This document shows positions 1,202 through 60,900 of a DNA stretch of 64,000 nt, one piece after another. Under the pieces are notes generated by a model, which saw nothing but the letters and a program-made list of their open reading frames with translations, was not told the origin of the DNA and did no database searches. Numbering within the stretch: the first letter of the stretch is position 1; the number at the start of each line of letters is the position of its first letter. Made by a program: the position numbers and the translations under genes. The stretch is taken from positions 11,204,993 to 11,268,992 of the forward strand of contig OY540814.1 in NCBI GenBank assembly GCA_961205875.1. Reading direction: 5' to 3'. This stretch comes from Sialis fuliginosa. Taxonomy: Eukaryota; Arthropoda; Insecta; Megaloptera; Sialidae.

Positions 1202-1813
1202 AGGGACCGGCACCAGTCTTGAAGATTTAAGAGCAAGGAGATGGGCTTCTTTTTTGTATGTAATTATCATGAACTCATGTTACTAATTAAAAATAAATCA
1301 ATTTAATTACCAAAGTCCGCAAATATAGTTTGTTTTTCAAATTATAGCATTTTGTTTTGTTTATGTTTTTTTTTTCTCCACTAATTAAAACAATAATAGA
1401 CGCTCAGTGATGGACACTCATAATTACAAAATCATAAGTACTACGGCACAAAAGTTACAAAATAAAGAATTGTAAAATTTGAAACAATGTAAAACAGATC
1501 TTGAGACTTCCGCGGTGATCTTGATATGGATCTTAGCTTCTGGGTGTAAGCCGCGTCGATTTGGTCGTGTTATCCATACAATGTAAAACAGATTCTATGA
1601 TAATATAATAATTAATAAATAGATTATACTAATAATTAGTTTAAATGTCCACCATTTTGACAGTCATTGGCCGATTGTCATCATATAAAGTTGTTTTACA
1701 ATTATGATTCAGTAATAGCAGTAATTAAATATCAACACATATTTCTAATTTGGTACATTTAATGAAACAAGAATCCAACACTGGGTTATTATCTAAGACT
1801 GGTACCAGTACCT
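1202..1813. mobile_element. TA-flanked non-autonomous DNA transposon, family A copy 1 (612 bp)
   Basis: The ends are inverted repeats of the form AGGKACYGGCACCRGTCTTG, and TA lies directly outside each end, as expected for Tc1/mariner-type insertion. The interior has no transposase frame. A second copy at 25553-26016 shares both ends and the central AT-rich sequence (a stretch beginning TTACCAAA and ending near AAACAATGTAAA), which confirms a dispersed family. Copy 1 is longer because of extra sequence in its right half. Confidence 0.75.
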
Positions 1814-4565: not shown

Positions 4566-5504
4566 TATATTTTAATTATTATTATGAATGTTACTACATA
4601 TTTTTAAAAGTTTTTTTATTAAATTAAACACCAAGCTTTTACTATTTATGGTGTTTTATTTTAACAAAAGTAAATTAGATTTTTGTTTCATTTAGATGTT
4701 AATTCATCCTTGAAATTCGTCTGCTAACGACGGATCGTATTTTAAACTAGTGTTGATTGATAACCTCAGCTTAATGTGCTGAAAATAAATAAGTGCTGAA
4801 ACTGCTGAAATTGACAACAACAACAACTTCTGTTAACAAAAAGCTTCACAGATAAATGCATTACCAAATAGAAAACAACGTACAAAAAATTATCTCGCGT
4901 CTATTATGTATACAATGTATTTTGAATACTTCATTTATTTTAAACCTTTTACGAAAGAAAAACAAAGTACAAGTCAAGTTTTTTTGTAAAGAAAAATTAA
5001 AATGTTAATTTTGTAGATTTTCTGTTAAAAGTATTAATAATTCACGAATGAATGGGAAGTTTACATTCTCTTAAATGAATAATGCCAAATTATTATTTTA
5101 TTCGTTAGGACAATCAAATAAATGAAAAGGCAGACATTTTTACTAAAATAATTACATAAATTTTATGAAAAATTATATATCATAAATGTATAAAAGATGT
5201 TTTATACTTAACTTGTCAAAACGAATATTTTCGTTTTAAAAACAATAATAATAACACTGATCAACACTAGTCATGCCACACGAACTCTCATAGCTAATAC
5301 TGTTTTAGTCACCTACCCTCATTAATAAATTGCAGTAGTTTTGTTTCGACTGGCCTCAAATTTTTTGTGATGTGTTGATAAGCATAATCTGTACTAGGGC
5401 AATAAACGCAAGTAAACGGACGCGAATAAATAGACATAAAATTAATTATTTTTGTATTAATTCAAATTTAGTGCTTTATAAGTAATTGTTGAGATTGTGT
5501 AAAT
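4566..5504. other. AT-rich sequence upstream of the zinc-finger-like pseudogene
   Basis: No gene was seen. The last 150 bp before the 5505 ATG would be the 5' flank or leader of the decayed gene. No TATA box could be singled out from the AT background. Confidence 0.3.
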
Positions 5505-6237
5505 ATGTCAAGAAATTGTAATAACGATCCGGATTCATTTTGTTATATTTGTGGTGATTTAACTTTCAAAAAACAAAGACGAAATTTTACTACACTTGTG
5601 TTAGAGAGTTATCGCCAGTATTTTGGTTTCTCTGTGGCTCATCAAGACAAATCTTGGACCCCTCATATTTGTTGCATAACTTGTGTAAAGAATTTAACTG
5701 ATTGGAAGAAAGGCCGCCGCCATATGCCGTTTGCGGTACCCATGATTTGTACCGAACCAAGAGATCACGTTTCGGATTGTTATTTCTGTTTTATAGATAT
5801 AAAAGGTATTAATTTCAAGAAAAAACACATGGTCAGTTACCCTAATTTACAGTCAACTAAAAGACCAGTACTTCATAGTGACAATTTACCTATACCAGTT
5901 GTACCTGCGGCCGTTGAGATTCAAAATTCACAACAGCCTTCCACTTCGAGCGAGTCGCGGAGCGGTGATGATGACGATGACTGTGAGTTTAAAGAAATTC
6001 CAGTCAAGCCACATTTCATAACTCAAGAAGACTTGAACGACTTGGTTCGCGACTTGAATTTGTCAAAAAAGCAATCAGAACTCTTAGGATCTCGATTAAA
6101 ACAATGGAAAGGTTCCATCAGGACATTTCACAGATGGAAAAACGTTATAAGGGCAAATGGAACCCAAGGATGTTGGCTGATTACTGCTGGACGATAAAAA
6201 GGGACCAACCAGAAGCTAAATATGCCAGAAAATCTTA
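5505..6237 (+). pseudogene. Internally deleted copy of a multicopy zinc-finger-like arthropod gene family
   Basis: The first frame (5505-6197, 230 codons) begins MSRNCNNDPDSFCYICGDLT. It has paired Cys/His motifs: CYIC near residues 13-16, ICCITC near 55-60, and DCYFCF after a conserved PFAVPM. Next come a Ser/Asp-rich linker and the segment ending LGSRLKQW near residue 200. I recognise this as the N-terminal part of an uncharacterised protein family found in many copies in insect (and Hydra) genomes. After LKQW the sequence jumps to a different frame encoding ERFHQDISQMEKRY, then ADYCWTIKRD, with a stop after ARKS at 6235-6237. That is the family's C-terminus. The large central part is missing, and the tail is read out of frame by the open ORF. 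It could be a decayed transposon-borne gene or a decayed host duplicate. Confidence 0.75.
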
Positions 6238-24721: not shown

Positions 24722-25330
24722 TAATTTTTACACGCTGATTTCAAATATGTCGACTAAAATCAAATCTGAACACCGGTTCAAAAGTAACGGCGATTTTTTC
24801 CAAAATTTTGAAAGAACTGGCACATAGAACTACACACACAAAAAATGTTTAATTTTAGATTTTGTTAAATGTATGTTTATTTTATACATTTTTACACGCT
24901 GATTTCAAATATGTCGACCAAAATCAAATCTGAACACCGGTTCAAAAGTAACGGCGATTTTTTTCCAAAATTTTGAAAGAACTGGCACAGAGAACTACAC
25001 ACACAAAAAATGTTTAATTTTAGATTTTGTTAAATGTATGTTTATTTTATACATTTTTACACGCTGGTTTCAAATATGTCGACCAAAATCAAATCTGAAC
25101 ACCGGTTCAAAAGTAACGGCGATTTTTTTCCAAAATTTTGAAAGAACTGGCACAGAGAACTACACACACAAAAAATGTTTAATTTTAGATTTTGTTAAAT
25201 GTATGTTTATTTTATACATTTTTACACGCTGGTTTCAAATATGTCGACCAAAATCAAATCCGACGACTCGTTCAAAAGTTACGGCGATTTTTCTTCAATT
25301 TTTTTTAAACGCATTGAGAACTATAAAAAT
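24722..25330. repeat. 165-bp tandem array, about 3.7 copies
   Basis: The anchor ACACGCTGRTTTCAAATATG recurs at 24730, 24894, 25059 and 25224, a period of 164-165 bp. The first three units are nearly identical; the fourth diverges and decays from about 25255. Because 165 is divisible by 3, a 101-codon frame crosses the array with a repeated peptide. That is a by-product and not a gene. Confidence 0.9.
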
Positions 25331-25552: not shown

Positions 25553-26016
25553 AGGTACTGGCACCGGTCTTGTGCGCTTTAAGAGCAAAGTATATTGTTT
25601 CTTTGGAATTATTGGGCTATTTTTTGTAATTCTCATGAACTCATGTTACTAATAAAACAACTACCTCTTTATTAAATCAATTTAATTACCAAAAACCGCA
25701 AATATAGTTTTTTTTTTTTTTTAAATATAGAATTTTATTTTGTATATATGTTTTTTCTCCAGTAATGAACACCGTAAAACTAGTAACAAACACCCAGTGT
25801 TGAACACTAGCTGAAAATTACAAAATGATTAGTACTACTACACAAACGTTATAAAATAGTCATAAAATTTAAAACAATGTAAAGTATTTACATAAGAAAA
25901 TACACTTTTCTTAATAGTCTGCCGAACCACGATAATTATTTGTCCACTGTCTTTAAACAAAATGATCAATTATCATGAAATCAAGCTCTTTTTGTTCAAG
26001 ACTGGTGGCAGTACCT
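25553..26016. mobile_element. TA-flanked non-autonomous DNA transposon, family A copy 2 (464 bp)
   Basis: The ends are AGGTACTGGCACCGGTCTTG and the complement of CAAGACTGGTGGCAGTACCT, with TA outside each. The interior is homologous to 1202-1813. No ORF. Confidence 0.8.
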
Positions 26017-26637: not shown

Positions 26638-27525
26638 CAGAGTGGGGCGTTTAAAGTGTTACAGTTTAATTAACTCAGAACCAACGCATATATGAAAAAA
26701 ATGTTTCAACCAAAAAATGTTTGGTTGTAAGGGGGTAAGTAATCGAATAGTAATATGTATTTGTTATTTTAACGTGGCCTTCAAGGATATTTGAAGGTCA
26801 ACATCATTTTTTTAAATAGGAACCTATAGTTTTTATTTAGTAATCTTATTCTACGTTAAAAAGACACGAATCTTTCATTGAAAACTTTTTTTGAACAACC
26901 TAAGCATTCCTAGGTATCTAACAAAATAATTCGACATTTTGAACAAGAATTTTTTTACTCAGAAACCATAAACTTTAGAAAAAAAGTACAAGATACTAAA
27001 AAAATTTATTTTGGTCTAATAAAGCTTGGCGAATTATTTTAAAAATTTTAAAAACTTTTTTAAACCTTTTATATTATTTTATTTTAGCAAAAACAAAAAA
27101 AAATACGAAATGTTAAAACAATTCTAGAATAATTCTCCAAGTTTCATTTGACCAAAATAAACATTTTTTGTGTCTTGTACTTTTTTCTAAAGCTTATGGT
27201 TTCTGAGTAAAAAAATCTTGAATGTTCAAAATCTCGAATTATTTCGTTAGATATCTTGGAAAGCGTAGGTTGTTCAAAAAATAGTTTTCAATAAAAGATT
27301 CGTGTTTTTTCACGTAGAATAAGATTACTAAATAAAAACTCTAGGTTCATATTTAAAAAAATGATATTGACCTTCAAATATCCTTGAAGGCCACGTTAAA
27401 ATAGCAAATAAATATTACTATTCGATTACCCTCTTACAACCAAACATTTTTTGGTTAAAACATTTTTTTCAAATATGCGATGGTTCTGAGATAATAATCT
27501 GTAACACTTTAAATGCCCCACTCTG
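26638..27525. mobile_element. Foldback element, family E copy 1 (888 bp), TA target duplication
   Basis: TA then CAGAGTGGGGCGTTTAAAGT starts the left arm; the right arm ends ACTTTAAATGCCCCACTCTG then TA. The arms run about 420 bp each and meet near 27080. Paired landmarks include AACGTGGCCTTCAAGGATAT with ATATCCTTGAAGGCCACGTT, and CCAAAAAATGTTTGGTTG. It is non-coding. A second copy is at 47696-48416. Confidence 0.85.
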
Positions 27526-40000: not shown

Positions 40001-43000
40001 AACGTGTTTACCTTAATTGCTGAAAAGTCGTCGTGAATCCGAAATATTATTTAACAAAATTGTATAAATAGTATGCTAGGAAAATTATTTTCTTATGCTA
40101 TGCTAATTTAAAGCATCCACCACTGGACTAAAGTTGATTACGCGCAAGAAAGTTTTTTGAATGAACAGTTTGCACATCGGTGTAAATATTGATTGTGCAC
40201 ACTCTGTTCGTCTTAAATCATTTAATTAGCGGCGCTCAGATCTCCCGTAGGCTTTGCCAACGTATTTTCTTTACCTCCCATTCGTTTTTCAACCAATTCA
40301 AATCGTAAATCAAGATGTAGATTATTCATGCTAGATACATTTTCGTACTATGATTATAGAATTTGATCCTGAACAGTTGTTACTGTCCAAATAACAAAAA
40401 AATCTATGCATTTATTTACGATATAAATCAACGTTTAAATGTGTATCTTATTTTTTTATATGTATTATTTTTTAGATTTGAATATTCCATGTTGGTCACT
40501 CATAATATCAAAATATATATTTTATACCAGAAGTTTTCAACGTGTGGGTTGCAGACCGAGTTTTGATGGATCGCAAGAAAAATTTAAAAATATTACACAC
40601 CAAGAAACGCATAATGGGGAACTTTCGATATTCACATAAAAAAGTCTGCTGTGAAAATAAAATATTGATAGTGAATTCATTTCAGTTCAAAATGATGAGG
40701 AATTACTAAATTTATCTCTCTGAAGATACCTCTTTGAAAATGAATTTTGACAGAAAAAAAATACAGTTTTAAAATACCCACCCAACTCTTTCTACCGCAG
40801 CTGTAAAAGTTCTGCTCCTTTTTATAACCTCATACATGTATGAAGTTGTATTTTCTTCCACTACAAGATTAAAAATAAATTTAAAAGTAAACTACAGTTA
40901 TCAAATTTTTTGCGTTTAAAAGTGGCTAATATAGATATGAAAATTAAGGACGTAATTAATAAAAACAGAAAAACAAGCGCATTTCTCTCACAAGTCGAAT
41001 GGATCGCAAAAAGTTTCCATTTTTAAAAGTGGGTCTTGATCCATATAAGTTTGAAAACCCCTGTTCTATACATTCCTAACACAATAATTTTGCTGTTTTT
41101 AACAAGAAATTATATATTAAAATTTTTAAATTATACAGTTTTAAAAGTTTATTTTAGTTCATTGTAAAATCGTCGCAGTAGGTACATGACGAGAATTTAA
41201 ATTTTTATTATGAAATGTAGGTTTTTATAAAAATATAAAATAAGATTCATCAAATTAAAAATTCCATAACTTCCAGGTAAAAAATACGACATATAAAAGT
41301 AAATAAAAATAAAATATTAACATTTTTTACAGTAACAAAGATGTATGAATATCTTATGTAAACGTAAACTTCGTTATAATTAATTTGCTCACCTTTGAGA
41401 AATCTCGAACATTTTTCTGTATCTAGTAAACACTGGAAAATATAACCACAAGAACTCGCCACAAAAAACAAGTTATCTTCTCTGGGATGGAAACGAATGC
41501 ACATTGCAGGTAAGTTATGGTCCATGCCTCCTCTCACGGTGGCAATTAGCATACCTTTATGGGCACTTCGTATCTGAACGTTAATGAATAAATTATATTT
41601 TCAAAATAAAATAACTGGACTAGTACTATTACCAATTTATTATTAAATAATACGAATAAATAAATAAAAACCCATCTAAAATTAATGCATGAAATGTATT
41701 TTTTAATATTTATGGTTTTGTTATAAAAATGTACTTATGAAATTAAAAATAAGTCATTAAATTTACTTTCATAAATCTACTAAATTTTTAAAATCAAATA
41801 AATAAAGAAAAAAGATAAATGGAAACTATAAATCAAAAAATATTTTACATAGTCTGAATTATACGTATCATAAATAAATATTTTACCAGATTAAAGTATA
41901 TAGAGTAAATTTTGTACTATTTTGTAGAATAAAAAGATGCTACGATATTTTTTAATCTTAAAGAATTTGAGATATAGAATATTTTATTAGATAACTTTAG
42001 CTAAAACTAACTGTTTTCCGAATAAAACTAGAAATAAAATTGGAAGCAGACATACCAGTACCTACCTACATAAAAAATTAAAAATTAAGACCTAAAATAG
42101 CGTCTACCTTATAACATAACATATTTAAAAAATGAAATGATTAATATTTAAACTTCTTAAAAAACGAACAGAATACAAATGAGTGTGCAACATTCCGCTA
42201 ATGGATACATAACATAAATGGCCAGAGTGCTAGAATAACGTACTGGAAGTTGCGGTTTCGATATCCATCTCAGCAGAGCCCGTCTAATGGAACGTCTTTC
42301 GTTAATGAACTAATCATGAATAAATAACACTGTCTGGCTAAATCAAAAGATATTCTCCATATCTTTTATTTTGGTACCTTAGATGTCATACACCAAAAAT
42401 ACATATATTATCGTATTAAATTAATGTACTACATACAGTACCGCAAGTAAATTTAGAACCGACATTTAATTATCGTATTGAATCATTTATAATATTATAA
42501 TAAATAATTGTTTATAATAATAATATTATTAACCCTGCTACGGTAGCGCCAAATCTCACTGATCTAACGTTTTTTATGGTGGATGGTGATAGATGCATGT
42601 TCTTCTTACTTGTAATATTTATATAAAAATATTACTGAAAAATGATACCAGAATTGACCCACCATTTGCACTGTTGGGATAAATATTTTTTAACAAATAA
42701 TTCCATCTTTCTTTTAAGCCGAAAAAATATTAAATTTCAATAATGTTCGTGCTACTCGAGTAATCATGAACATCAAAGATTTTGTTTTTTCTTGAATGGT
42801 AATTTTGTTCTTATATTTTAATAAAATCGATAATGAAAATTTATAACTAATGGATTATAATTATATCCAATACATCTATTGGTTTTAATTTATTTCATTT
42901 TTCCCTTAGGTGTATGCAATTACCCCACTCTCCCTTACGTATACATTGTACTATGGGCTTCAGAACTCATCTACCACCGTAAAGGTCAGAATCGCTATAA

Positions 43001-46000
43001 CATATTTAAAAATATTAAGACAAACATCATCGGTTATCTTTTTCTAGGGCGGAGCTTATATAGTTACATCATTTTTATATCAAGTGTAACATACATATTT
43101 AAATGCTCATACTAAAATTCAGAATATCAAATATTTATTGCCACAAAAATTACTTATACAATTTTCAATAGATTACATAATAATTTAATCGCACAAATAT
43201 ATATGAGTATTATAAACGAAAAGTACTTCTTTATCTAACAAATGAGTTTCAAAATAGCTGTCTTTGTTTGGTACATAGAAAAATGATTTAAATATTATAA
43301 TAATCAAATGGAAGGAGCATACTAACAATAAGTTTGTGATAAGCCAAGTTGAATAAAAACTGGTCGACCACTTCTGCATGCGACTGTACATACGAGTACA
43401 TATTATTATTATGTAATATATAAATTTACTTCTTAGAAGTTAAAAGGGAGACATCAATATTTTATGAAATATTGAACAATTTGTTCGTCTTCTAATCAAG
43501 TGGTTCCGAAACTATGGACTGGCAGGTACCCAGTAATCAAACCATTGCTCTACTCATTTACGTTTATAGTTAGGTATCAAAATAAACAAATCAGGAATGA
43601 GTGGAGTTTTAGTTTTAAATGTAGTTTATAATGTTACGAAAGTTGTATGTTAAAGTACATACATACAAGAAACATTATTAAAGATCCCTAAAGACTTTCA
43701 ACAATAAAGTACGAGCCAAACTTATGTTAACAAAAACATAAAGAGATTCTACTAATATATCTAAATCCTTTCAGTTCAGATGTAACTATAGAAACTTCGC
43801 ACATCTAGTATGTAGACATGGTCTAATTAATTGAAAAAACACATAAATATATGTCATACGAGTATCTATCCTTTAATAAATGTGCACTCGCCATAGTATT
43901 TTAGCAAAATTCTATACGATTTTTGCTTCCTCGCAATATCGAAGATAAGAGAAGCTATGTGATCGTTTGAGATTGAGACAAAAAAAAAGTTCTTCAATTT
44001 CAAAATTTTAAATTGATTTATCCGTTTCACGTCAAGACAAACGCTTTTCGTTCCGTGTCTGTCTGTCTGTCCGTGTGTCCGTCCGTCCGTCCGTCCGTGT
44101 GTCCGTCCGTCCGTCCGTCCGTCTGTCCCCTGAATCCTTGTCACACGCATAACTCATGAACCACTGAACCGATATTATTGAAACTTAGTCGGATAGTTGG
44201 GTTTGGTTTGAGGACGGTCCCATTTCAAAATCATCAAAATCGTGTGTAAGGGAGAGGAGTGACACCCCAAAATATTTCTTTTTTCATATTTAATTTTTTT
44301 ACGAGAAAATTTTATAGAATATTTTTTGTAGAGCATTAAATTCCCTATAATATGGGTCTACTACGTTTGTTGTAAAATATTCCCTTACAAAGATTTATCT
44401 CAATTTATTTTAAAAATTCGTGTTTTGTTTTTCTAAATTGATATTTAATTGGATATATTAAATGTCATTTTGACGTTTTAAATGTCATTTTGGCGTTTTA
44501 AATGTCACTTTTTGACGTTTTAAATGTAATTTTGACAAATAAGTTGAATAGTTAATATGTCAGCTTGGCGCGATCGAGGAGACTCCAGTTTTTTTTTTTT
44601 AAATATAGCTTACACCATTATCTTTAAGACTATCTAATGCCCGAAGACCTTCGAGTGCGCCTTCGGCTATTATTAAGAAATTTAAATTGAAAATTTAACA
44701 AATAAATTGAATAGTTAATATGTCAGCTTGGCGCGATCGAGGAGACTCCAGTTTTTTTATTAAATATAGCTTACACCATTATCTTTAAGACTATTTAATG
44801 CCCGAAGACCTTCGAGTGCGCCTTCGGCTATTATTAAGAAATGAAATTGAAAATTTAACAAATAAGTTGAATAGTTAATATGTCAGCTTGGCGCGATCGA
44901 AGAGACTCCAGTTTTTTTTTTTAAATATAGCTTACACCATTATCTTTAAGACTATCTAATGCCCGAAGACCTTCGAGTGCGCCTTCGGCTATTATTAAGA
45001 AATTTAAATTGAAAATTTAACAAATAAATTGAATAGATAATATGTCAGCTTGGCGCGATCGAGGAGACTCCAGTTTTTTTTTTAAATATAGCTTACACCA
45101 TTATCTTTAAGACTATCTAATGCCCGAAGACCTTCGAGTGCGCCTTCGGCTATTATTAAGAAATTTAAATTGAAAATTTAACAAATAAATTGAATAGTTA
45201 ATATGTCAGCTTGGCGCGATCGAGGAGACTCCAGTTTTTTTTTAAATATAGCTTACACCATTATCTTTAAGACTATTTAATGCCCGAAGACCTTCGAGTG
45301 CGCCTTCGGCTATTATTAAGAAATTTAAATTGAAAATTTAACAAATAAGTTGAATAGTTAATATGTCAGCTTGGCGCGATCGAGGAGACTTCAGTTTTTT
45401 TTTTAAATATAGCTGACACCATTAACTTTAAGACTATCTTATGCCCGAAGACCTTCGAGTGCGCCTTCGGCTATTATTAAGAAATTTAAATTGAAAATTT
45501 AACAAATAAGTTGAATAGTTAATATGTCAGCTTGGCGCGATCGAGGAGACTCCAGTTTTTTTTTAAATATAGCTCCTATCCTAGTCCCATTTCAAAATCG
45601 TGTGTAAGGGAGAGGGGTGACATGCCAAAATATTTATTTTTTCAAGATATCTCAAGAACGACACGTTACGTGAAAATTTTATAGAATATTTTTTGTAGAG
45701 CATTAAATTTCCTATAATATGGGTCTACAACGTTTGTTGTAAAATATTCCCTTACAAAGATTTATCTCAATTTATTTTTAAAATTCGTGTTTTGTTTTTC
45801 TTAATTGATATTGCTTGAATATATAGTATTAAATATCATTTTGACATTTGCATAAATTTAGATTTAGATTGAAATTTCCAAAAAATTAAAAATTATGAAA
45901 AAATAATCAGGTGCATTTTAAGAAAAATTTCGAACTAATTTTTTTAATTAAAATTGTATAAAAATTAAATGGTTAACCAATTCCAGGCAATTTATATAAA

Positions 46001-47528
46001 CACTATCGTTTTTTTTTTAATTATTGAATAATTAACTACCTTAGGTGAATTTAGCACGAGGAAGCACTGTGCATTTACTTGGCAGATGTTTTTATACACA
46101 ATATTAAAAAAAAAAAACGTTCTATACGTTAGTGTCCGTCAATTTTAAATATTAACTGGAAACTCCCTTAATCAGTTCTTTGTAACCAAAAAATAAGGTA
46201 GCCATAAAGGCTATGCTCAATGCACTTTAAATGTACCTAACGTTTATTTTAAATAGTAATTTTCACGTTTTTCTGAAAATACTACTTTTCTCTCAATTTT
46301 TCCTGTATATTATGACTTTTTTCGAAATCCGAAAAAATTTTAAAGAAAAATATAGTTTTTTTTTAAATTAATTTGTAAATTCCGTCTCCGTTGAAAATCG
46401 ATTTTTTAGAAATTTAACAAATTTTCATGTTTAATCGATTTTCTACGGAGAGGGAATTTATAAAATAATAAAAAGAACTATAGTCTTCTTTAAATATTTC
46501 TAGCTACCAAAAAAAGTCAATATACAGGAAAAAAAATGAGAGAAATGTAGTATTTTCAGAAAATCGTGAAAATTACTACTATTTTAAATATACGTTAAAT
46601 TCAAAGTGCATTAAGCATAGCCTAAATATTAATTGTCAACGCTGAGATTGCGGCTACCTTATTTTTTGGTTACAAAAAACAGATTGATGAGGTTTCCCGT
46701 TAATATTTCAATCTGTACGGACACCCTAGTATACATACAGTGGTCAGGGAAGAATTTATAAAATGCACTTATGCCCTAATATTATTTTTGCGAAAAAATA
46801 AATTTAATTTATTATTCAAAATTGAGAAAAATTAATAAATAAATTATTTTAATTTATAAGATAAATTATCTTAATGTAATAGCTTTCATGCTTCATATAT
46901 ACTGACTGACATATTGTTTTGTGAAGTTAATGATTCGGGCCAGAAGCTGAACAATGGTCCACTCACAACGTAACCCGACGCGACATAAGCGTGATTTTGA
47001 AATCTTCGATCGTGAGTAATAGTAAAACAGCCTGAGTGCATGTTTATTTTCCGAAATATTTTAGAAAATTAGTTTTACTATTCTCAAATTTTAAAAACAG
47101 TAATGCGATGTTTTATCAAAAGGAATTTATGTTAAAAATATTATACAAAATAGAATTTGCCATATTTATTCCGACATTAAAATCTCGTTATCGTGAATGA
47201 ATAAAATAATTTAAACCGGGAGCAAAAATAACTCACACAACTCTAATCTGGGCTTGTACTAATTCATTAGTAAACTTGTAAATATAATTAACGAAACCAA
47301 CTCAATTTCTTAATTCACCTGTATAGATCCTGACCCACAAGCAGTAATAAACAAATCTTCCTTTGGAGAAAAGCAAACGCAGTATAATCCGCAAGAATCT
47401 TGCGGTAAATTAATTTCTTTAATGATTCTTCCAGTATGCGATATTGAACCGAACCGTTCATGAATGAACTGAATTTGAAAAGGATTTAACTCCTCTTCTT
47501 TCGTGGATTTCTCTACAGATTGTGTCAT
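28094..47528 (-). CDS. WD40 repeat beta-propeller protein, 7 coding exons, 353 aa
   Basis: Coding exons in transcript order are 47319-47528, 41393-41573, 37320-37426, 33515-33655, 33295-33375, 29501-29707 and 28094-28228. They join in phase to 1062 nt with no internal stop. WD-type blades are visible: CVCFSPKEDLFITACGSGSI (exons 1-2), CIRFHPREDNLFFVASSCGY (exon 2), YTLDMNPIGYNMATSGKDAG then VRIYD (exon 3), ALKFAPTSNEIFLTGGWDDI then VKMWD (exons 4-5), GDIMLTGSWVKENSLQLWD (exon 6), LIVAGGSGT (exon 6) and KIVYGGMEAKFRI (exon 7). About seven blades fit one closed propeller, so the protein is probably a binding scaffold; its partner is unknown. The closest family I can name is the uncharacterised WD proteins with a GPHICG motif before blade 5. 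All introns are GT-AG, but the exon 6 donor is a weak GTCAAT. An acceptor at 47541 suggests a non-coding upstream exon. Confidence 0.9.
28625..29004. mobile_element. pogo-like MITE pair in WD40 intron 6
   Basis: The unit 28875-29004 (130 bp) starts CAGTAAGATCTCGATTATTC and ends GGATAAACGAGGTCTTACTG, with TA on both sides. A second left end, CAGTAAGACCTCGATTATCC, starts at 28625 after TA. Both are followed by the shared GATAACACGGAAGAAATAA. The first has lost its right end, or the whole 380 bp is one element with a duplicated left end. This terminus is typical of pogo/Tigger-like families in animals. Confidence 0.8.
29111..29451. mobile_element. Palindromic AGATCT-rich MITE in WD40 intron 6 (about 341 bp)
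   Basis: The ends CATCCCGGAAAAAAATTTTG and the near complement of TAAATTTTTTTCCCGGGATC pair, and pairing continues through GATCTGAAGTGATCAA to a central hairpin AACGTTGAAAATTAATG / AATTTTCAACGTT at 29280-29309. GATC or AGATC recurs about twenty times, so the entire element can fold as one long stem. It ends only about 50 bp from exon 6, on the weak-donor side. Confidence 0.8.
30463..30560 (+). mobile_element. Solo CACTGGG-type transposon end in WD40 intron 5
   Basis: CACTGGGCAACAACGATACT matches the inverted end near 6442-6430 over its first 13 bases. A right partner was not found. Confidence 0.35.
32288..32410. mobile_element. Partial MITE, family D
   Basis: CATAGACATAGAGCATGAAC, then GCATCTGATTCGAAAA and GAGTCTCACAAAAAAAGAGA, resembles the left half of 13763-13948. 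The right end is missing. It lies in WD40 intron 5. Confidence 0.5.
32513..33134. mobile_element. TTAA-flanked non-autonomous element in WD40 intron 5 (622 bp)
   Basis: The left end GGGGCTATTCTACTTCG and right end CGAAGAAATAGAATAACCCC are inverted repeats of about 18 bp. Exact TTAA flanks both (32509-32512 and 33135-33138). TTAA duplications are made by piggyBac and Kolobok transposases; I cannot tell which mobilised this copy. No ORF of note. Confidence 0.8.
35028..35054. repeat. (GA)n microsatellite
   Basis: About 13 GA units after GAGGGGGAGA, in WD40 intron 3. Confidence 0.9.
35920..36132. mobile_element. Short hAT MITE with an internal poly-C tract (213 bp)
   Basis: It starts CAGTGCTTCCCAAAATTATT and ends TTAGGAAAACACTG. 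These are inverted hAT-type ends (CAGTGNTTYCC). Flanking 8-mers GCCTATTT and TTCTATTT agree at 6 of 8 positions. Internal GTGGAACCCTA is also typical of such elements. About 18 consecutive C (36007-36024) make this a length-unstable site. It lies in WD40 intron 3. Confidence 0.7.
36581..36905. repeat. Direct tandem duplication, unit about 150-175 bp
   Basis: ATGAAAGGTGATATTTCGTC recurs as ATGAAAGGTGATATTCGTCA at 36756. Both copies continue through TTAGTATACTTAATTAGTTA and end near TCATATGCCAAA followed by ATAGG. The second copy has lost about 20 bp. It lies in WD40 intron 3. Confidence 0.8.
37534..37742. mobile_element. TA-flanked MITE in WD40 intron 2 (209 bp)
   Basis: CAGTGTGTCCCAGGATAGAT starts after TA, and ATCTGTCCTGGGACACACTG ends before TA. 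The roughly 25-bp inverted ends with one to three mismatches fit a mariner-mobilised MITE. Confidence 0.85.
38399..38639. mobile_element. TA-flanked element filled with CCGATCCGAT repeats (241 bp)
   Basis: The ends GAGATCTGATCG and CGATCTGATCTC are inverted and flanked by TA. The left half repeats the CCGATCCGATCCGAAA / CCGGTCCGATTTATAC motif several times. The right side carries the complement GGATCGGATCGGACTGG, so the low-complexity filling is also self-complementary. It lies in WD40 intron 2. Confidence 0.7.
40528..41063 (+). mobile_element. hAT element relic with transposase C-terminal remnant (536 bp)
   Basis: It starts CAGAAGTTTTCAACGTGTGG and ends AAGTTTGAAAACCCCTG (inverted hAT ends). 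Flanking 8-mers TTTTATAC and TTCTATAC match at 7 of 8. Plus-strand sequence 40809-40985 still reads, with a frame change, as LLLFITSYMYEVVFSS, then TRLKINLKVN, then LRLKVANIDMKIKDVI. This fits the conserved C-terminal dimerisation region of hAT transposases, which usually has LLPF..TY.CE.GFS and later LR..LS.I.P.I. It is broken by at least one stop and one frameshift, so it is dead. It lies in WD40 intron 2. Confidence 0.75.
42205..42340 (+). repeat. Possible tRNA-derived SINE in WD40 intron 1
   Basis: An A-box-like TGGCCAGAGTGC at 42219 and a B-box-like GGTTTCGATATCC at 42254 are spaced as in a tRNA-type Pol III promoter. The rest does not fold as a tRNA, and the tail is AATAAATAA-rich. A SINE head is the likeliest reading; chance is possible. 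Confidence 0.4.
44055..44128. repeat. (GTCY)n microsatellite
   Basis: About 18 units of GTCC/GTCT with a few GTGT interruptions. It leads into the conserved CGCATAACTCATGAACCACT followed by GAACCGATATTATTGAAAC. A (GTCY)n run next to such a core is a mark of mini-me/Helentron-like elements in insects. Confidence 0.85.
44530..45580. repeat. 161-bp minisatellite, seven copies
   Basis: The anchor CAGCTTGGCGCGATCGAGGA recurs at 44561, 44723, 44883, 45046, 45207, 45367 and 45528 (period 160-163). Units differ mainly in the length of a T run after CTCCAG and by a few substitutions. Each full unit contains GCCCGAAG followed by CTTCGAGTGCGCCTTCGGC, which can form a CCGAAG/CTTCGG hairpin. The last unit is cut after the T run. 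Confidence 0.95.
46127..46729. mobile_element. Foldback element, TA target duplication (603 bp), WD40 intron 1
   Basis: TA then CGTTAGTGTCCGTC starts the left arm; ACGGACACCCTAG then TA ends the right. The arms pair through TTGTAACCAAAAAATAAGGT / ACCTTATTTTTTGGTTACAA and TTTTCTGAAAATACTAC / GTAGTATTTTCAGAAAA, meeting near 46410. No ORF. Confidence 0.85.
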
Positions 47529-47540
47529 TGTCGAACTTCC

Positions 47541-51900: not shown

Positions 51901-54900
51901 TAAATCTTTCATTATCATAAAATAGCTTTTGATTCGTATTATCAAGTAGAGAATGTTACTGAGAATAGAACCCTATCATGTGCATGCCCAACACGCACTT
52001 GTCTGTTTTTTCTTACTATGAGAGAATATCAATGTGACTGACCTGATTATTAAATTTTCATTTTTGGTTTAATTACACCACACTGTCAAAAATTTTTTTA
52101 GTAATTTTACAAAAATGTGTAGGAAGTTTTTACGCACCACAATTTTCGGAATTATGGAACACAGTTTTGTAAATTTACTATACAATTTATCACAACTCAA
52201 TTTTAAACTATTACAAATCATCTGTCGCAAAATTACTAATCATTTACTAGACTTATGTTTAGTAATATTACTGTACATTATTCGTAATTTTACTAAGCCA
52301 AATGTTTCTAATAATTTTAGTAATTTTACAAAAATGTGTAGGAAGTTTTTACGCACCACAATTTTCGGAATTATGGAACACAGTTTTGTAAATTTACTAT
52401 ACAATTTATCACAACTCAATTTTAAACTATTACAAATCATCTGTCGCAAAATTACTAATCATTTACTAGACTTATGTTTAGTAATATTACTGTACATTAT
52501 TCGTAATTTTACTAAGCCAAATGTTTCTAATAATTTTAGTAATTTTACAAAAATGTGTAGGAAGTTTTTACGCACCACAATTTTCGGAATTATGGAACAC
52601 AGTTTTGTAAATTTACTATACAATTTATCACAACTCAATTTTAAACTATTACAAATCATCTGTCGCAAAATTACTAATCATTTACTAGACTTATGTTTAG
52701 TAATATTACTGTACATTATTCGTAATTTTACTAAGCCAAATGTTTCTAATAATTTTAGTAATTTTACAAAAATTTATTGTAATTATACTAGACAATTTAT
52801 ACCAATTTAGTTTAGAAAAATTACAAACTATTTGTTGCAATATTACTAACCTTTATTAAAAAATTGTTTAGTAATATTACAATACAATAGTCGGAATTTT
52901 ACTAAACAAATTAGATTAAATACATTTAGTAATTTTACAACCATATATCGTAATTTTTCAACCCAACTAATACCAATTTAGTTTCGAAAAATTACAAACT
53001 ATTTGTTGCAGTATTGAATTTTTACTACCCAACTTACATCAAGTCAATTTGAAAAAAATACAAACCGCTCGTTGCAATATTACTATGCATCGGGATATAA
53101 CTTGCATAGCTTTATTTCAATATCAGACTGTAATTTTACTGAAAAAAATTGTTAAATCAATGAATGCTACAACAGCGTATTTTAGTGTTAAATATAAAAT
53201 ATTTATTAAATATTAATTTATTAATTATTTAATTAACAATTAAACATATGTCATTAATTATAACAGTGTTATCAATAATTTATATTATGAAAATAATAAC
53301 ATAATTTAATGCTAACACAAATTTTAAATTTTTTTTGAAGATTATTCTGACGTTTTGATTGCCACATAATTAATTGCCAAATCACGAGTAATGTAGGCAC
53401 GGAGTATTTTTCCAATATTCTTGGTTATATCTACTGTCTTGTTTATTTAGCATAACAATTTGTAAATCTAAAAAAAGAAAATTATTATTCATGTCTTATA
53501 AACGAATTATATAAAATAGGGCTTATATAAAAAAATAATAATTTTATTTGTGATTACTTACCAATTTTTTTTTTAAATCAACATCATTTTTAATTTTATC
53601 ATTAAATTTAATAAAACTTTCTTCATTTTGTAGTGGAAGAATCATTCACTCTCAGAGTTACTGATTTCGTCACTCAAAATGCTTGTTGAATTATGAAGTT
53701 TTTCAATGACATTTTCAAGGCTTTGTAATCTGGTTGAATAATTGGTTAATTGACTTCCTAAATTTGACAAACGTTTGCCGATGCTTACAAAACAGCTCGA
53801 TATGAATTGATGCAGATCTTCTGTAACAAAAAAAATCACGTTTCCAATACACATTAAAGAAAAAAAAAACGATGTATGTTTTTACCTATTGTCATTGGTT
53901 GATTTGCACTGGTCTCGAGTTTTTCTTCAGCTTTTTTTTTTACAATCCTTTTTGGATTTAATATATTGTTTGGATCTAATCCGTTAGTGTTGTCTTCATC
54001 ACTGGAAAATTCCGTTGAAGTTGACTTAATGTCAGTGTCATCAGATGGGTGACAACTTGGGATTGAAATCGATTTAGAATTCAATTTTTTTCTTTTTGTG
54101 TGTTGACTTTTAGGATTAGATGAATCTAACATTAAAAAAAATATATTTGTTGCATATTTATAACAAAAAATTTTACCAAAAAAAATTAAAACTACTTACG
54201 AATTTTTATACCAAGATCGTCTGTCCATTTCAATGCTGCTTGACTAAATTGTTTGTTAATGAGCTCTTTATTCTTTGCAACAAATTTGCGCTTCAGAGCC
54301 TTCTTATCAGTATCTGCTTTTTTTTGCAGATTCTTCATTTGCTGTCGAGTATACATATGGTTTTGTTTCTAACTCAACGATTTTATTTTCAGCTTCTTTA
54401 TAAGTATCTAAAAAATTGATTAATAATATGTCAAAATATTTTTTTTGCTCATAAAAAATTAATAAAATGTAAAAAAATTAATATTGTGGTAAAGAATTTA
54501 TTTTAAAATAACATATCATTACTTACGAGCACTTCCGCGAATATCCACTAGAAATGTTGGCTATGTAGATTTGGGTGGTTCTAAATTTTTCACCATTTCT
54601 TGCAGTTCTTCGCATACATTTGGATCATCAAGCAGGCCTGGCATATATTTGCAATATACCTTATCAGAATCTTCTTCAAAATGAAGCCATGTATATATAA
54701 TATAATATAATATAAGACGATATTTATGATCCATGTCTATAAAAAACAAAACAAAAAGTGGGTATGTGTACTTATGTACACGCGTTAGAAGTTATACTTA
54801 TTTGTCGTGAAATTTTAAAACACTTATCAAAATTTGATTACACATTTCAAATATTAAAATCTTAGTTTTGGAAAAAAATTATTTGAAACAAGAAAATATT

Positions 54901-57900
54901 TCTTTTGCCTTAAAATTTTAACTCCAAAAATAAAAATCATTTGTTTAGACAAATGGCTACAGCTTAAAGATGTAAGTAGGTGAAAAAGTTACCTGAATTA
55001 TAACAGATATATATTCAATAAACGTTAAAAACAATTATTGGATTAAACAACAGAATTATAAAAAATCACCTGTAGCAGCATCAATCTTTACACAACAAAT
55101 TTTTAATAACGACTGTTCAAAAATCGTATTATTGCTCATACGCAGTAGCTTAGCATCGTGAGAAAATAAAATGTAACAAAATTTACCCCTTCCGCCAGCG
55201 CGTTCACATGAAACTATGTTCTATACCAGTATTTCTCAAACTTTTTGAATTGAATCACTCATAATTGTGATTAATAGCGAAATTTAATATCAATAATAAT
55301 TAATAACAAGTTAATAACTTATCTCGAGTACATCTTTGAACAAAATATTATTTGTATATTTTTCGACATTAACTTAACTAACTAATTGAGTTTACTTAAA
55401 ATATTTTAAATTAAATTTAATGTGACGAGTGAGCGCGGCTTTGTTTTGATGTTGGTCAGTACTGAAAATACCATTTCGTATAATAGGGCGAGCGGATTAC
55501 AGCTATTTCGAGTACACTAACCAACCAATCGACGTTCTAGTGGCTAAAAATGATTTTATTAAATTCTTTATATTTTTCTGAGAAAAAACATCTATATACA
55601 TGATATTTTTTTATGCGGTCCTTCAATAGGTACACACATTTTTTTGTTTAATAAATCTAAATCTGCATTAAAAAATCTGAAAAAATTATGTAAGCTTCAT
55701 TGGATTAAAATAAACATTTTTTGTCTCATAAACTTTTTTTTTAAAGCTATAGTTTTGAAGATAAAAAATATTTTAACTTTAAAAATAGCGAAAAATTCGT
55801 ATATTTGTGAATTTTTTTCTCGGTAACTAATTGTTCAATCAGAATAAAACATAAACAAAAAGAATCAGCCAACTTTAAACTATAATTAGATTTTTTTTCA
55901 TTTTGATTATTACTGTAATTAAATGTAAAAACTTCATTAGAGCCGAACTCACTCCTTGCGCCGTAAATCGATACCATGGCTGGCTACAATTTTCGTTTAA
56001 TGATTGAAATATTTAAATACTGGGATGAAAGTTTCAATAAAAACACTTTAGAATATTTTTATTGCATATTTATTTGTTACAATTATTTTCTTTATTGTTA
56101 CACTTATCAAAACATCTACAAACTGAACAACATTTTAAATCTAAATCCAAACAAGAGCATGTTTTAGCTGTACAAGGAAATTTTCCGCAACAAGAACAGA
56201 AATATTTTTTGTAGATGTTCTGATAAGTATAATATTATAATAAAGAAAATAATCGTGACAAATAAATGTGCAATAAAAATATTCTAAAGTGTTTTTATTG
56301 ATGCATTCATCCCAGTATTTAAATATTTCAATTATTATTAAATGAATGTTGTAGCCAGCCATGGTATCGATTTACGGCGCAAAGAGTGAGTTCGGCTCTA
56401 ATGAAGTTTTTACATTTAATTACAGTAATGATCAAAATGAAAAAAAATATAGTTATAGTTCAAAGTTGGCTGATTCTTTTTGTTTTTGATTTATTTTGAT
56501 TGAACAATTAGTTTCCGAGAAAAAAAATCACAAATATACGAATTTTTCGCTATTTTTAAAGTATAAATATTTTTTATCTTCAAAACAATTGATTTTAAAA
56601 AAAAGTTTATGAGACAAAAAATGTTCATTTTAATCCAATGAAGCTTACATAATTTTTTCAGATTTTTTAATGCAGATTTAGATTTATTAAACAAAAAAAT
56701 GTGTGTACCTATTGAAGGACCGCATAAAAAAATATCATGTATATAGATGTTTTTTCTCAGAAAAATATAAAGAATTTAATAAAATCATTTTTAGCCACTA
56801 GAACGTCGATTGGTCGGTTATTGTCATTTCTAAGCGAGCTAGACTCGATAATCCGCTCGCCTATAAATAAGTTGGTTGCAAATGGCAAGAGAACTGTCAT
56901 TGTTAATTCAGCGAATAGTGGACACTGTTTTCACACCAAGTAAAAAATAATTGTTTGCTTACTAAACTCGGTTTATGTCATCAATTTTTCTGCGACCTTC
57001 CTAGGAGTCGCGACCCACACTTTGAGAATCACTGTTCTATACTTGTGTCGGCATGTCAAAAGAAACGCAACAATGATTTTTTCTATGCTGGTCGGGACTT
57101 GCAAATTCGAATAAAATTAAAGGTTGTTTTACACCGGCATATGGAGCATTTATAAAGGTTGTTTTAGGCATTTTGACCAGTTTATATATAATTCATAAAT
57201 AATAATTAGCAAAGATTTACTTACTTTCAAATATAAAAAATGTTGATATGCAGATTTGAACATACCCTATTACACTTACAATTAAATTTTATCACTATTT
57301 TTTACCACAGTGAATAATTCGGTTCTTTCACAATTTTTTTTATACACTTGATCGATTCTATGAGGTTTTTTTTATAAAACTAACATATTTCATATTCAGA
57401 AACAACATGTATATTAAAACATTTTAATAAAAAAAAAATATTTTTTTATAATCTATACTTCATACTTGCAATTCAAGTATAAATGTTTGCTACTAATTTT
57501 ACTTAGAACTGCATTCAAATTAAATTTTAAATCTGCATAAGTCACAATTTTATAAAAATGCAAAATAAATATACCAAGTTTTATACTTGAAACTACACAG
57601 CAGAATTAGAAGATTACATAAAACTATATGATTGTAAGAGACACTAGTAAAAATATAAACAAATCTAAAGTAATTAAAGTTTTACAATTTTTCAATCACT
57701 TTTTGCAATTTGGATTACGTATTTCAGTTAGTCATTTTTTTGATAACTGTAGTAAGATTAGACTACAAATAGGTATAGAAATTTTACAAAATTTTAGACT
57801 TGAAATTACAAACAAGAATTGTAAAAATACATAGCGCTCATGACTTGAAAGAAATTTTGTAAAAATGCAAACAGAATTTTCAAAAAAAAGTAATGATTTG

Positions 57901-60900
57901 TAAATTTCCTGTAATTGTAACTGCAAGTTTCGGTTAGTAATTTTACTATTAATCTTGGTAAAATCAAAATCCGAATATGTGTAGAAATTTTACAAAGTTT
58001 TAGACTTGAAAATTACAAATAAGAATTGTAAAAATACATAGCGCTCATGACTTGAATGAATTTTTGTAAAAATGCAAACAGAATTTGAAAAAATAAATAA
58101 TAATTTGTAAATTTCCAATCACTTCTTGAGATTGTAATTGCAAATTTTGGTTAGTAATTTTACAGATAAATGTGGTAAAATTAAATTCCGAATATGTGTA
58201 GAAATTTTACAAAGTTTTAGACTTAAAATTACAAACAAAACTTGTAAAAATACATAGCGCTCATGACTTGAATGAATTTTTGTAAAAATGCAAACAGAAT
58301 TTGAAAAAATAAATAATGATTTGTAAATTTCCAATCACTTCTTGAGATTGTAATTGCAAATTTTGGTTATAGTGGAGAGCCGTAAGATTTATACCTCGGA
58401 ATCCAGGGCCAGTCAATGAATTTTTATGAAACCTTTTGGAATGTGTTTTTAACACTAAATAGAAAAAAGTTAAAAAAAAAAATTTGGACGGTCTCAATTT
58501 TTTATGTATTAAAATTAATAATTGGGTCATTCCATATAAAATCATCAAGGTGCTGAAGTTGCAACATTTTTAATTTTGATGAAAGTTTAATCATTTGTTA
58601 TTATACTTATTAGATAGCAGAAACTGTAGTTAGAAAATTTTTAATGGCCATAGTTCGGGGGTGGTGACCATTTTACCCTCTTAAGATATGAAGATTTCGT
58701 CGATTTTCAACGTTTTTTCAACTCGCTATAGCACGCGTTCTAATAAAGCAATTATAACGGGCTTGATGTCATTTGAAAGCATAAAAAGTCTAGTTTCAAA
58801 TGATCTAGCACGATTTTAAGTTTAAATTATTTTTTTTGTAGATAGAGGCTTTTTAATTTTATTAATAATATTGTCATTTTTTCTATTTTTCGAAATTTAT
58901 TGCGGCTTTAAGGTTAAACTGAGAAAGCTAAAATTATGTGTAAGTTATGTTCATTTATAGTACTCAGTACCCACAAAAAATCAGCTTGATTGATGCACAT
59001 ATTTTATTAAAAAAATTTTGTTCAATATCGCAAAAATCCCGAAAACACCAAAATCAGCTTCGAAACAAAGAGCGGGAAAAAAAGAAAAATTTGGGAAAAA
59101 CTCATAGAATCTTTTTTAAAGTACTTGAAAAGAACTTCAAAATGAGCACTGTTAAAAGTTGATTGTACAAAAATTGACGGAGATATGATACAAATAAAAT
59201 TAGTATTAATATTTTTCAGCGTAAAGATTATCAACAATACCCCCACCATTACCACCAAAATCAAAATTGGACGTAATCCTTCTACAATTCCTTTCAATTG
59301 AGTACTATCAATGTGATCCAGGAGTTTTGACCGTTTTAAATGCCTGGTTTTGAAAAAAAGTTTGATTAAAATGAAGAGAGATTTTTTATAATTTCAAAAA
59401 AGATTGTTTTTTTTTTAATTACTCAAAAACTAATACAGATACGAAAAAATAACAAGAATAAAAATAGTTGGAATTTTTTATTTAGTATAAGTTTTTTTTT
59501 TTTGTTTTCTGTAACATTAAAAATAATTGAGTTATGAACGTTTGAAGTTTGTATGTTACAGTGAAAGTCCCCTTTCCCTGTCCCTTTAAACGGAATAATT
59601 TTCAAAATGAAGGGTTCAAATAAGTCAAAACTCCTGGATCACGTTGATAGTACTCAAGTGAAAGGAATTGTAGAAGGATTACGTCCAATTTTGATTTTAG
59701 TGGTAACGGTGGGGGTATTGTTGATAATTTTTACGCTGAAAAATATTAATACTAATTTTATTTGTATCATATCTCCGTCAATTTTTGTACAATCAACTTT
59801 TAACAGCGCTTATTTTGAAGCTCTTTTCAAGTACTTTAAAAAAGATTCTATGAGTTTTCCCCAAATTTTTCTTTTTTTTCCCGCTCTTTGTTTCGAAGCT
59901 GATTTTGGTGTTTTCGGGATTTTTGCGATATTGAACAAAATTTTTTTAATAAAATATGTGCATCAATCAAGCTGATTTTTTGTGGGTACTGAGTACTATA
60001 AATGAACATAACTTACACATAATTTTAGTTTTCTCAGTTTAACCTTAAAGCCGCAATAAATTTCGAAAAATAGAAAAAATGACAATATTATTAATAAAAT
60101 TAAAAAGCCTCTATCTACAAAAAAAATAATTTAAACTTAAAATCGTGCTAGATCATTTGAAACTAGACTTTTTATGCTTTCAAATGACATCAAGCCCGTT
60201 ATAATTGCTTTATTAGAACGCGTGCTATAGCGAGTTGAAAAAACGTTGAAAATCGACGAAATCTTCATATCTTAAGAGGGTAAAATAGTCACCACCCCCG
60301 AACTATGGCCATTAAAAATTTTCTAACTACAGTTTCTGCTATCTAATAAGTATAATAACAAATGATTAAACTTTCATCAAAATTAAAAATGTTGCAACTT
60401 CAGCACCTTGATGATTTTATATGGAATGACCCAATTATTAATTTTAATATATAAAAAATTGAGACCGTGCAAAAATTTTTTTTTAACTTTTTTCTATTTA
60501 GTGTCAAAAACACATTCCAAAAGGTTTCATAAAGATTCATTGACTGGTCCTGGATTCGGAGGTTTTAAGATTTCTATGCCTTACGACTCTCCACTATTAG
60601 TAATTTTACAGATAATTGTGGTAAAATTAAATTCCGAATATGTATGGAAATTTTACAAAACTTTAGATTTAATTCTACAACTTTGAATGGTAAAATTACA
60701 ACAAGTTTCTGACGAATACAAAAAATTTGTAAAATTGCAACCTGCTTAGTACTCTTGTTATTACAAATTGCAATATTACTACGAATGCGTTTGAAAATTC
60801 CAATACAATACGAGAGTTTGTAATTTTACAAAGCAACTGCTTAGTAAAAATGTAGTAAATTTACAAAAATTTTTAACAGTGCAGCATTGCAAATATCTTT

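What the first reader, a model, noticed from the sequence alone, without database searches (positions are those of the whole stretch)
52081..60881. Three-level nest of DNA transposons carrying a decayed multi-exon gene inside an intron
Seen directly: an 8.8-kb element with CACTGT ends contains a hAT foldback with a perfect 8-bp duplication, a 2.2-kb palindrome with a TTA duplication, and five exon-like blocks. The outer element has EnSpm-like architecture (CAC start, dense subterminal motifs) but no transposase I can find. A gene resembling DUF4806 as cargo in such an element would be an unusual case of gene capture by a non-autonomous CMC-type transposon.
Basis: partly seen in the sequence, partly recalled or inferred. 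Interest (0 to 1): 0.8.

Follow-up and report, generated by a model that had tools for sequence, protein, structure and literature searches.

The report
Nested transposon that jumps as one
A stack of three jumping DNA elements, one inside another and carrying a broken gene, belongs to a family of very similar copies across this genome, and the full three-part stack is found at a second place, so the whole stack probably moved together.

Summary
The outer element (52081-60881) has CACTGT/ACAGTG ends; the hAT foldback (55227-57034, 8-bp duplication) and palindrome (58370-60596, TTA duplication) are real. The unnamed 392-Mb host genome has 161 matches to the left 30-mer and 164 to the right (controls 0). 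Twenty copies, taken from the best-scoring ones, were read in full: 6.1-6.5 kb, mean pairwise identity 99.7%; 18 of 20 have an exact 2-bp duplication (17 TA, 1 TG). Empty sites confirm it for two insertions. Two surprises: 21 of 21 copies read (window included) hold the hAT, so the mobile unit is a 6.3-kb composite; and a copy on contig C1 carries the palindrome at the same base between unrelated flanks, so the three-level nest apparently moved as a unit. The exon blocks form a DUF4806-like gene (best 22.1 bits, under Pfam's cut-off of 25) with two stops shared by 21 of 21. GTAANNTTAC occurs 22 times in the subterminal 2.3 kb, 0 times elsewhere in the window. Best reading: a non-autonomous CMC (CACTA/EnSpm-like) family moved by an unidentified enzyme. 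Whether DUF4806 was captured or was the ancestor's own end-binding protein is open. 'Inside an intron' is not shown.

The parts
52081..60881 (.). Outer CACTGT element (8,801 bp with both insertions), flanked by CA/CA
   Evidence: Ends and flanks; 161 matches to the left 30-mer and 164 to the right one, up to 2 mismatches, controls 0; empty sites of two other copies
52079..52080 (.). Target-site duplication CA (left); the right copy is 60882-60883
   Evidence: a 2-bp duplication is typical of the family
52081..52097 (+). Left terminal inverted repeat, 16 of 17 positions shared with the right end
60865..60881 (-). Right terminal inverted repeat
52096..52773 (+). Left subterminal array, 219-bp unit x3.1, rich in GTAANNTTAC; many other copies have one unit fewer
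57727..58369 (+). Right subterminal array, 216-bp unit, interrupted by the palindrome and resuming at 60597
53342..55139 (-). Decayed DUF4806-like gene, possible exons 55139-55070, 54736-54527, 54407-54200, 54125-53886, 53820-53562, 53467-53342; five GT-AG introns; the first exon is the least certain
   Evidence: Pfam PF16064 on joined exons 5+6: 20.5 bits, E=6.2e-4 with window pieces; 22.1 bits, E=1.9e-4 with the exon-5 reading of other copies; cut-off 25; in-frame stops in exons 2 and 6 in 21 of 21 copies
55227..57034 (.). hAT-type foldback (1,808 bp), duplication TTCTATAC; in 21 of 21 copies read; 87 bp separate it from the possible start codon of the gene
58370..60596 (.). 2.2-kb palindromic element with 3-bp TTA duplication and TAGTGGAGAG ends; a repeat family in the genome; at the same site in the C1 copy

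Best explanation
It is one copy of a recently amplified, non-autonomous DNA-transposon family of CMC (CACTA/EnSpm-Mirage-Chapaev) type. Shown: discrete ends CACTGT...ACAGTG, a 2-bp (mostly TA) target duplication, arrays of a palindromic GTAANNTTAC motif beside both ends, about 160 copies, near-identity of the copies read, and no intact gene recognised in them. Shown: a hAT foldback sits at the same base in every copy read, so it entered before that part of the family spread. Shown: the palindrome is at the same base in two copies with unrelated flanks; the simplest account is that the three-level nest moved as a unit at least once. Inferred: a CMC-type transposase supplied in trans cuts at the CACTGT ends after the GTAANNTTAC sites are bound, and pastes the whole unit into TA-like dinucleotides, taking internal insertions along. 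Inferred: the dead DUF4806-like gene once made a protein of the autonomous ancestor, possibly the end-binding protein, and its loss did not stop movement because the function came from elsewhere.
For: Copies and ends. Pairing: 72 of 74 left ends examined have a listed right end; 70 of the 72 lie 5,888-6,574 bp away. Duplications: 18 of 20 exact. Empty sites for two insertions, L019 and L024. Mean pairwise identity 99.73%, minimum 99.39%, gaps left out, over 21 copies. hAT in 21 of 21, and its right edge in 12 of 12 right halves, ten of them from copies not read in full. Palindrome at the same base in the C1 copy, flanks unlike the window's (23 and 25 of 100 positions), own TA duplication. Shared stops in 21 of 21. 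Motif: 364 in 49,020 bp of subterminal sequence of 20 copies against 2 in 73,485 bp of flanks. No transposase family in 10 frames of the element. Transposase_21 genes exist in the genome: two PF02992 matches, eight matches to the C10 protein, itself included; the C10 gene lies between AACTGTTTTTAAA/CACTGTTTTTAAT repeats.
Against: No autonomous partner with the same ends was found: the 17-base TIR followed by a base other than the family's gave 5 matches against 2 in the controls. The flanks read at three transposase genes lack the family's ends; at C11 only 2.0 and 1.5 kb were read, and a lone GTAANNTTAC and a CACTGTAAAATC occur there. So the CMC assignment rests on ends, duplication and repeats only. 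Two of 20 copies have a one-base offset in the duplication. The 20 copies were the plus-strand ones among the 40 best-scored matches, so identity is biased upwards and a near-perfect left end was selected for; gene conversion could also raise identity. That the shared stops are stops depends on my gene model; no intact relative was seen.
Confidence: 0.78

Rival explanations
1. Gene capture: a host DUF4806-like gene was picked up by a non-autonomous CMC element and amplified as dead cargo.
For: The gene keeps introns and no transposase was recognised beside it; it is broken in 21 of 21 copies read.
Against: No host DUF4806 gene was found in this genome, but the family search is blind to this split domain (0 candidates although the genome contains the copies, and nothing in the 14 control genomes), so this counts for little. 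The gene is in every copy read.
Confidence: 0.35
2. Accessory-gene origin: the DUF4806-like protein is the element's own second protein, a TnpA-like binder of the GTAANNTTAC arrays.
For: [quoted passage not shown] It is multiplied in Hydra in a table that also lists transposase domains (PMC7642931, passages). For animal CACTA elements a TnpA-like role has been proposed for a fast-evolving schistosome protein without detectable relatives elsewhere (PMC1636069, passages). Motif arrays.
Against: Binding untested. The DUF4806 match is below Pfam's cut-off in every construction tried. No exon of the gene was found in the C10, C14 or part of the C11 transposase regions (best E 0.76), though these are other families.
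Confidence: 0.4
3. The palindrome in the C1 copy results from gene conversion between copies or a second insertion at the same base, not from transposition of the three-level nest.
For: Copies are near-identical, so conversion is possible; the 285-bp tail beyond the palindrome is the same (0 or 1 differences) in 20 of 20 copies and so does not link the two. The interior of the C1 copy was not read.
Against: Same base, same TTA, 100% identity over the 531 bp compared; a second independent hit at that base is improbable.
Confidence: 0.12
4. The copies are segmental duplications or assembly artefacts.
For: Very high identity among copies.
Against: Twenty of 20 copies show different 12-base flanks and 18 of 20 own duplications; empty sites exist for two; the left ends listed lie on 13 contigs.
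Confidence: 0.01

Closest known systems
CACTA/EnSpm elements of the CMC(T) clade, including ESTA (EnSpm-like with TA duplications) of fungi
   Same: CA..TG ends, 2-5 bp duplication, TA in ESTA (PMC12730594, passages); subterminal repeats and the CACTA core are recalled features of plant members
   Different: No transposase recognised inside; a DUF4806-like gene instead; carries a hAT in every copy read
SmTRC1 and other animal TRC elements
   Same: Animal CACTA superfamily, 2-bp duplication, spliced genes (PMC1636069, passages)
   Different: TRC ends begin CCC, not CACTGT; no Transposase_21 here
hAT non-autonomous foldback elements
   Same: 8-bp duplication; CAGTG-type ends (the end consensus is recalled)
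   Different: Travels inside another transposon in 21 of 21 copies read
Harbinger-type (PHIS) non-autonomous elements
   Same: 3-bp duplication (canonical Harbinger makes 3-bp duplications, PMC12730594, passages; the TTA/TAA preference is recalled)
   Different: No transposase recognised; the palindrome is assigned by its duplication only, its TAGTGGAGAG ends were not matched to a named family

Membership tests
CMC (CACTA/EnSpm-Mirage-Chapaev) | 5'-CA..TG-3' termini | tested here: met
   CACTGT/ACAGTG in 20 of 20 copies read and in the window; the left end was a selection criterion, the right end was not
CMC (CACTA/EnSpm-Mirage-Chapaev) | 2-5 bp target-site duplication | tested here: met
   2 bp in 18 of 20 copies, empty sites of two insertions, CA/CA in the window
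CMC (CACTA/EnSpm-Mirage-Chapaev) | Repeated subterminal motifs | tested here: met
   GTAANNTTAC density
CMC (CACTA/EnSpm-Mirage-Chapaev) | DDE transposase with C(2)C and H(3-4)H, encoded or supplied in trans | tested here: inconclusive
   None recognised in the element; Transposase_21 genes elsewhere are not shown to act on this family, and flanks read at three of them lack its ends
DUF4806 (PF16064) | Match over Pfam's curated cut-off | tested here: inconclusive
   20.5, 19.8 and 16.2 bits for three constructions and 22.1 bits, E=1.9e-4, against 25; 0 of 8 reversed or shuffled controls matched any family at E up to 1; but a frame over the 219-bp repeats reached E=8.3e-4 for an unrelated family
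hAT | 8-bp duplication and CAGTG-type TIR | tested here: met
hAT | hAT transposase | tested here: inconclusive
   No transposase family in the six short frames scanned that lie in the foldback or overlap its edge; a non-autonomous element need not encode one, so the filing is by structure only
Harbinger/PHIS (palindrome) | 3-bp TTA/TAA duplication | tested here: met
   supported by restoration of the element's own repeat unit
Harbinger/PHIS (palindrome) | Harbinger transposase | tested here: inconclusive
   No transposase family in the three frames scanned that lie in the palindrome or overlap its edge; membership is not claimed

The most novel reading that the evidence does not exclude
DUF4806, a BEN-type DNA-binding domain, is the TnpA counterpart of an animal CACTA-like transposon lineage. 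It would bind the palindromic GTAANNTTAC arrays; this family kept the arrays, lost the gene, and still spread to about 160 copies, carrying up to two other transposons with it.
Probability: 0.3. Interest if true: 0.75.

Novelty: new variant of a known kind. Interest (0 to 1): 0.5.

Why it matters
The family shows that a DNA transposon can carry other transposons as passengers, apparently up to a three-level nest, without losing mobility. It also places a DNA-binding-type domain of unknown function inside an element with a dense, specific motif array, which makes a direct binding test possible for a TnpA-like protein of animal CACTA elements.

Tried and rejected
Literature: DUF4806 with transposon (3 papers), DUF4806 alone (4 papers); passages of three were read, the fourth seen as a listing; none states a link to a transposon. 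Other listings; passages of PMC4298943 were seen and not used. The library lacks most subscription journals.

Rejected: the palindrome as private to the window copy. I held this after reading 21 copies and dropped it when one search showed it in the C1 copy. Rejected as direct partners: the C10, C14 and C11 transposases, because the flanks read lack the family's ends. C13 and the four decayed relatives were not read.

The two unpaired are the window copy (beyond that reach) and L022, whose right end was read. In one search the L016/L032 row is the same copy and is not an empty site; the L013 row has a gap at the junction and the L024/L019 row has one near it; neither is relied on.

weakens the DUF4806 match a little (an unrelated family at E=8.3e-4 for a repeat frame); strengthens it (22.1 bits, 0 of 8 controls). 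The wording 'long-missing' and 'dated' was withdrawn.
Full report
What is there. The 8.8-kb stretch starts CACTGTC at 52081 and ends ACAGTG at 60881, with CA on both sides. Inside are a hAT foldback at 55227-57034 with TTCTATAC on both sides, and a palindrome at 58370-60596 with TTA on both sides. The palindrome sits in one of the element's own repeat units: joining its flanks restores the unit seen at 58151. The window has 28.1% G+C.

The family. The host genome is held unnamed: 392,097,322 bases in 20 contigs. The left 30-mer occurs 161 times and the right 30-mer 164 times with up to 2 mismatches; the reversed controls give 0. I read 20 copies in full: the plus-strand ones among the 40 best-scored matches, so they are a selected, near-identical sample. 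All 20 run from CACTGT to ACAGTG and measure 6,082-6,514 bp. Eighteen of 20 have exact 2-bp duplications, 17 TA and 1 TG; two are offset by one base. For two insertions that fell into repeats, L019 and L024, related empty copies show a single TA at the junction. Mean pairwise identity of the 21 copies, window included, is 99.73%, minimum 99.39%, gaps left out. This suggests a recent spread; no mutation rate was used to date it, and gene conversion was not excluded.

The real mobile unit. All 21 copies hold the hAT at the same site with the same duplication. Twelve right halves, ten of them from copies not read in full, also show its right edge, one with a changed base. A query joining the hAT flanks found no copy without it among the 40 of 330 candidates scored. 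The ancestor of these copies thus already carried the hAT. Of 74 left ends examined, 72 have a listed partner; 70 of the 72 are 5,888-6,574 bp away. No short deletion derivative was seen among them.

The whole nest apparently moved. One of the two long copies, C1:609432-618004 (8,573 bp), contains the palindrome. Its two junctions and its TTA are the same as in the window; its flanks are unrelated (23 and 25 of 100 positions) and it has its own TA duplication. The 285-bp tail is identical too, but it is nearly so in all 20 copies. That this copy also holds the hAT follows from coordinates and from its half-match; I did not read its interior. The simplest account is that the three-level nest transposed after the last insertion; conversion between copies is the main alternative. 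The other long copy, C3:23714688-23722496 (7,809 bp), was fetched only in part (L031).

The gene. On the minus strand, 55139-53342, six possible exons are joined by five GT-AG introns. Exons 5 and 6 joined at their splice sites match DUF4806 with 20.5 bits, E=6.2e-4; two longer constructions give 19.8 and 16.2 bits. With exon 5 as it reads in other copies, without the window's 7-bp deletion, the match is 22.1 bits, E=1.9e-4, and 0 of 8 controls (one reversed, seven shuffled) match any family at E up to 1. All stay below the cut-off of 25. For scale, a frame over the 219-bp repeats reached E=8.3e-4 for an unrelated family. I take the identification as likely, not proven. One in-frame stop in the second exon and one in the last are shared by 21 of 21 copies; frame breaks at A-runs vary between copies, and the 7-bp deletion is seen in the window copy alone among the 21. 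On this model the gene was broken before these copies spread; no intact relative was available to confirm the frames. The hAT ends 87 bp upstream of the possible start codon, where it may have damaged the promoter (inference).

Ends and motifs. GTAANNTTAC, a palindromic pattern, occurs 22 times in the 2,255 subterminal bases and 0 times in the other 61,745 bases of the window. In the 20 copies it occurs 364 times in 49,020 subterminal bases against 2 in 73,485 flanking bases. The intervals were set by me, and tandem units repeat the same sites, so the counts are not independent. Repeated binding sites beside both ends are typical of plant CACTA elements (recalled).

The enzyme. None was recognised in the element: no long frame and no transposase family in 10 of its frames. 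The genome has two matches to Transposase_21, both over the cut-off, and eight matches to the C10 protein, itself included. The C10 gene (748 codons, open) shows a C-x2-C and an H-x3-H pattern by eye, and lies between imperfect AACTGTTTTTAAA/CACTGTTTTTAAT repeats without a clear duplication. The flanks read at C10, C14 and C11 lack the family's ends; at C11 one GTAANNTTAC and one CACTGTAAAATC were seen. No second family with the same 17-base TIR stands out: 5 matches against 2 in the controls. The partner is unidentified.

Comparison. CMCT elements share CA..TG ends in most cases and make 2-5 bp duplications; ESTA uses TA (PMC12730594, passages). Maize Spm needs TNPA and TNPD; the authors of SmTRC1 propose that the schistosome protein SmTRC-PrA plays TNPA's DNA-binding role, and found no relatives of it in other animals (PMC1636069, passages). 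[quoted passage not shown] 2023, which I did not see). I therefore keep two readings of the gene open, accessory protein or captured gene, and favour the first slightly.

The intron claim. A WD40-like gene lies on the minus strand at about 41253-47540; two pieces match coatomer alpha and other WD40 chains weakly (best E=3e-5). The nest lies upstream of what may be its first coding exon. In the frames listed on the far side I recognised no exon by eye, and no search was run there, so intron or intergenic location stays open. That the host is an insect is my impression, not a result.

Noticed in passing
window 27117-27238: 71-73% similar to both arms of the hAT foldback: a diverged relative elsewhere in the window.
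   Followed up: no
L043 3398-7002 (C10): Open 748-codon Transposase_21 gene between imperfect AACTGTTTTTAAA/CACTGTTTTTAAT repeats; no clear target duplication.
   Followed up: partly
C11:624318-626525, C14:1730109-1731770, C13:17827641-17828702: Relatives of the C10 transposase in open frames of 933, 826 and 716 codons.
   Followed up: partly
L011 and L026, element ends: Target duplication offset by one base (TA/ATA and TAT/TA), as if one base was added at an end.
   Followed up: no
C3:23714688-23722496: 7,809-bp copy with about 1.45 kb extra in its right part, perhaps another nested insertion.
   Followed up: no
window 58370-60596: The palindrome is itself a repeat family: 429 first-look candidates, 40 scored, the listed matches at 92% identity or more.
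   Followed up: partly
window 1578-1770 and 25643-25786: Members of two dispersed repeats that serve as empty sites for the L019 and L024 insertions.
   Followed up: yes
window 5493-6194: Open 234-codon frame rich in Cys near its start, without a significant Pfam match.
   Followed up: no
window 24724-25292 and 44519-45574: Tandem arrays with 165-bp and 161/321-bp units, 96-97% alike.
   Followed up: no
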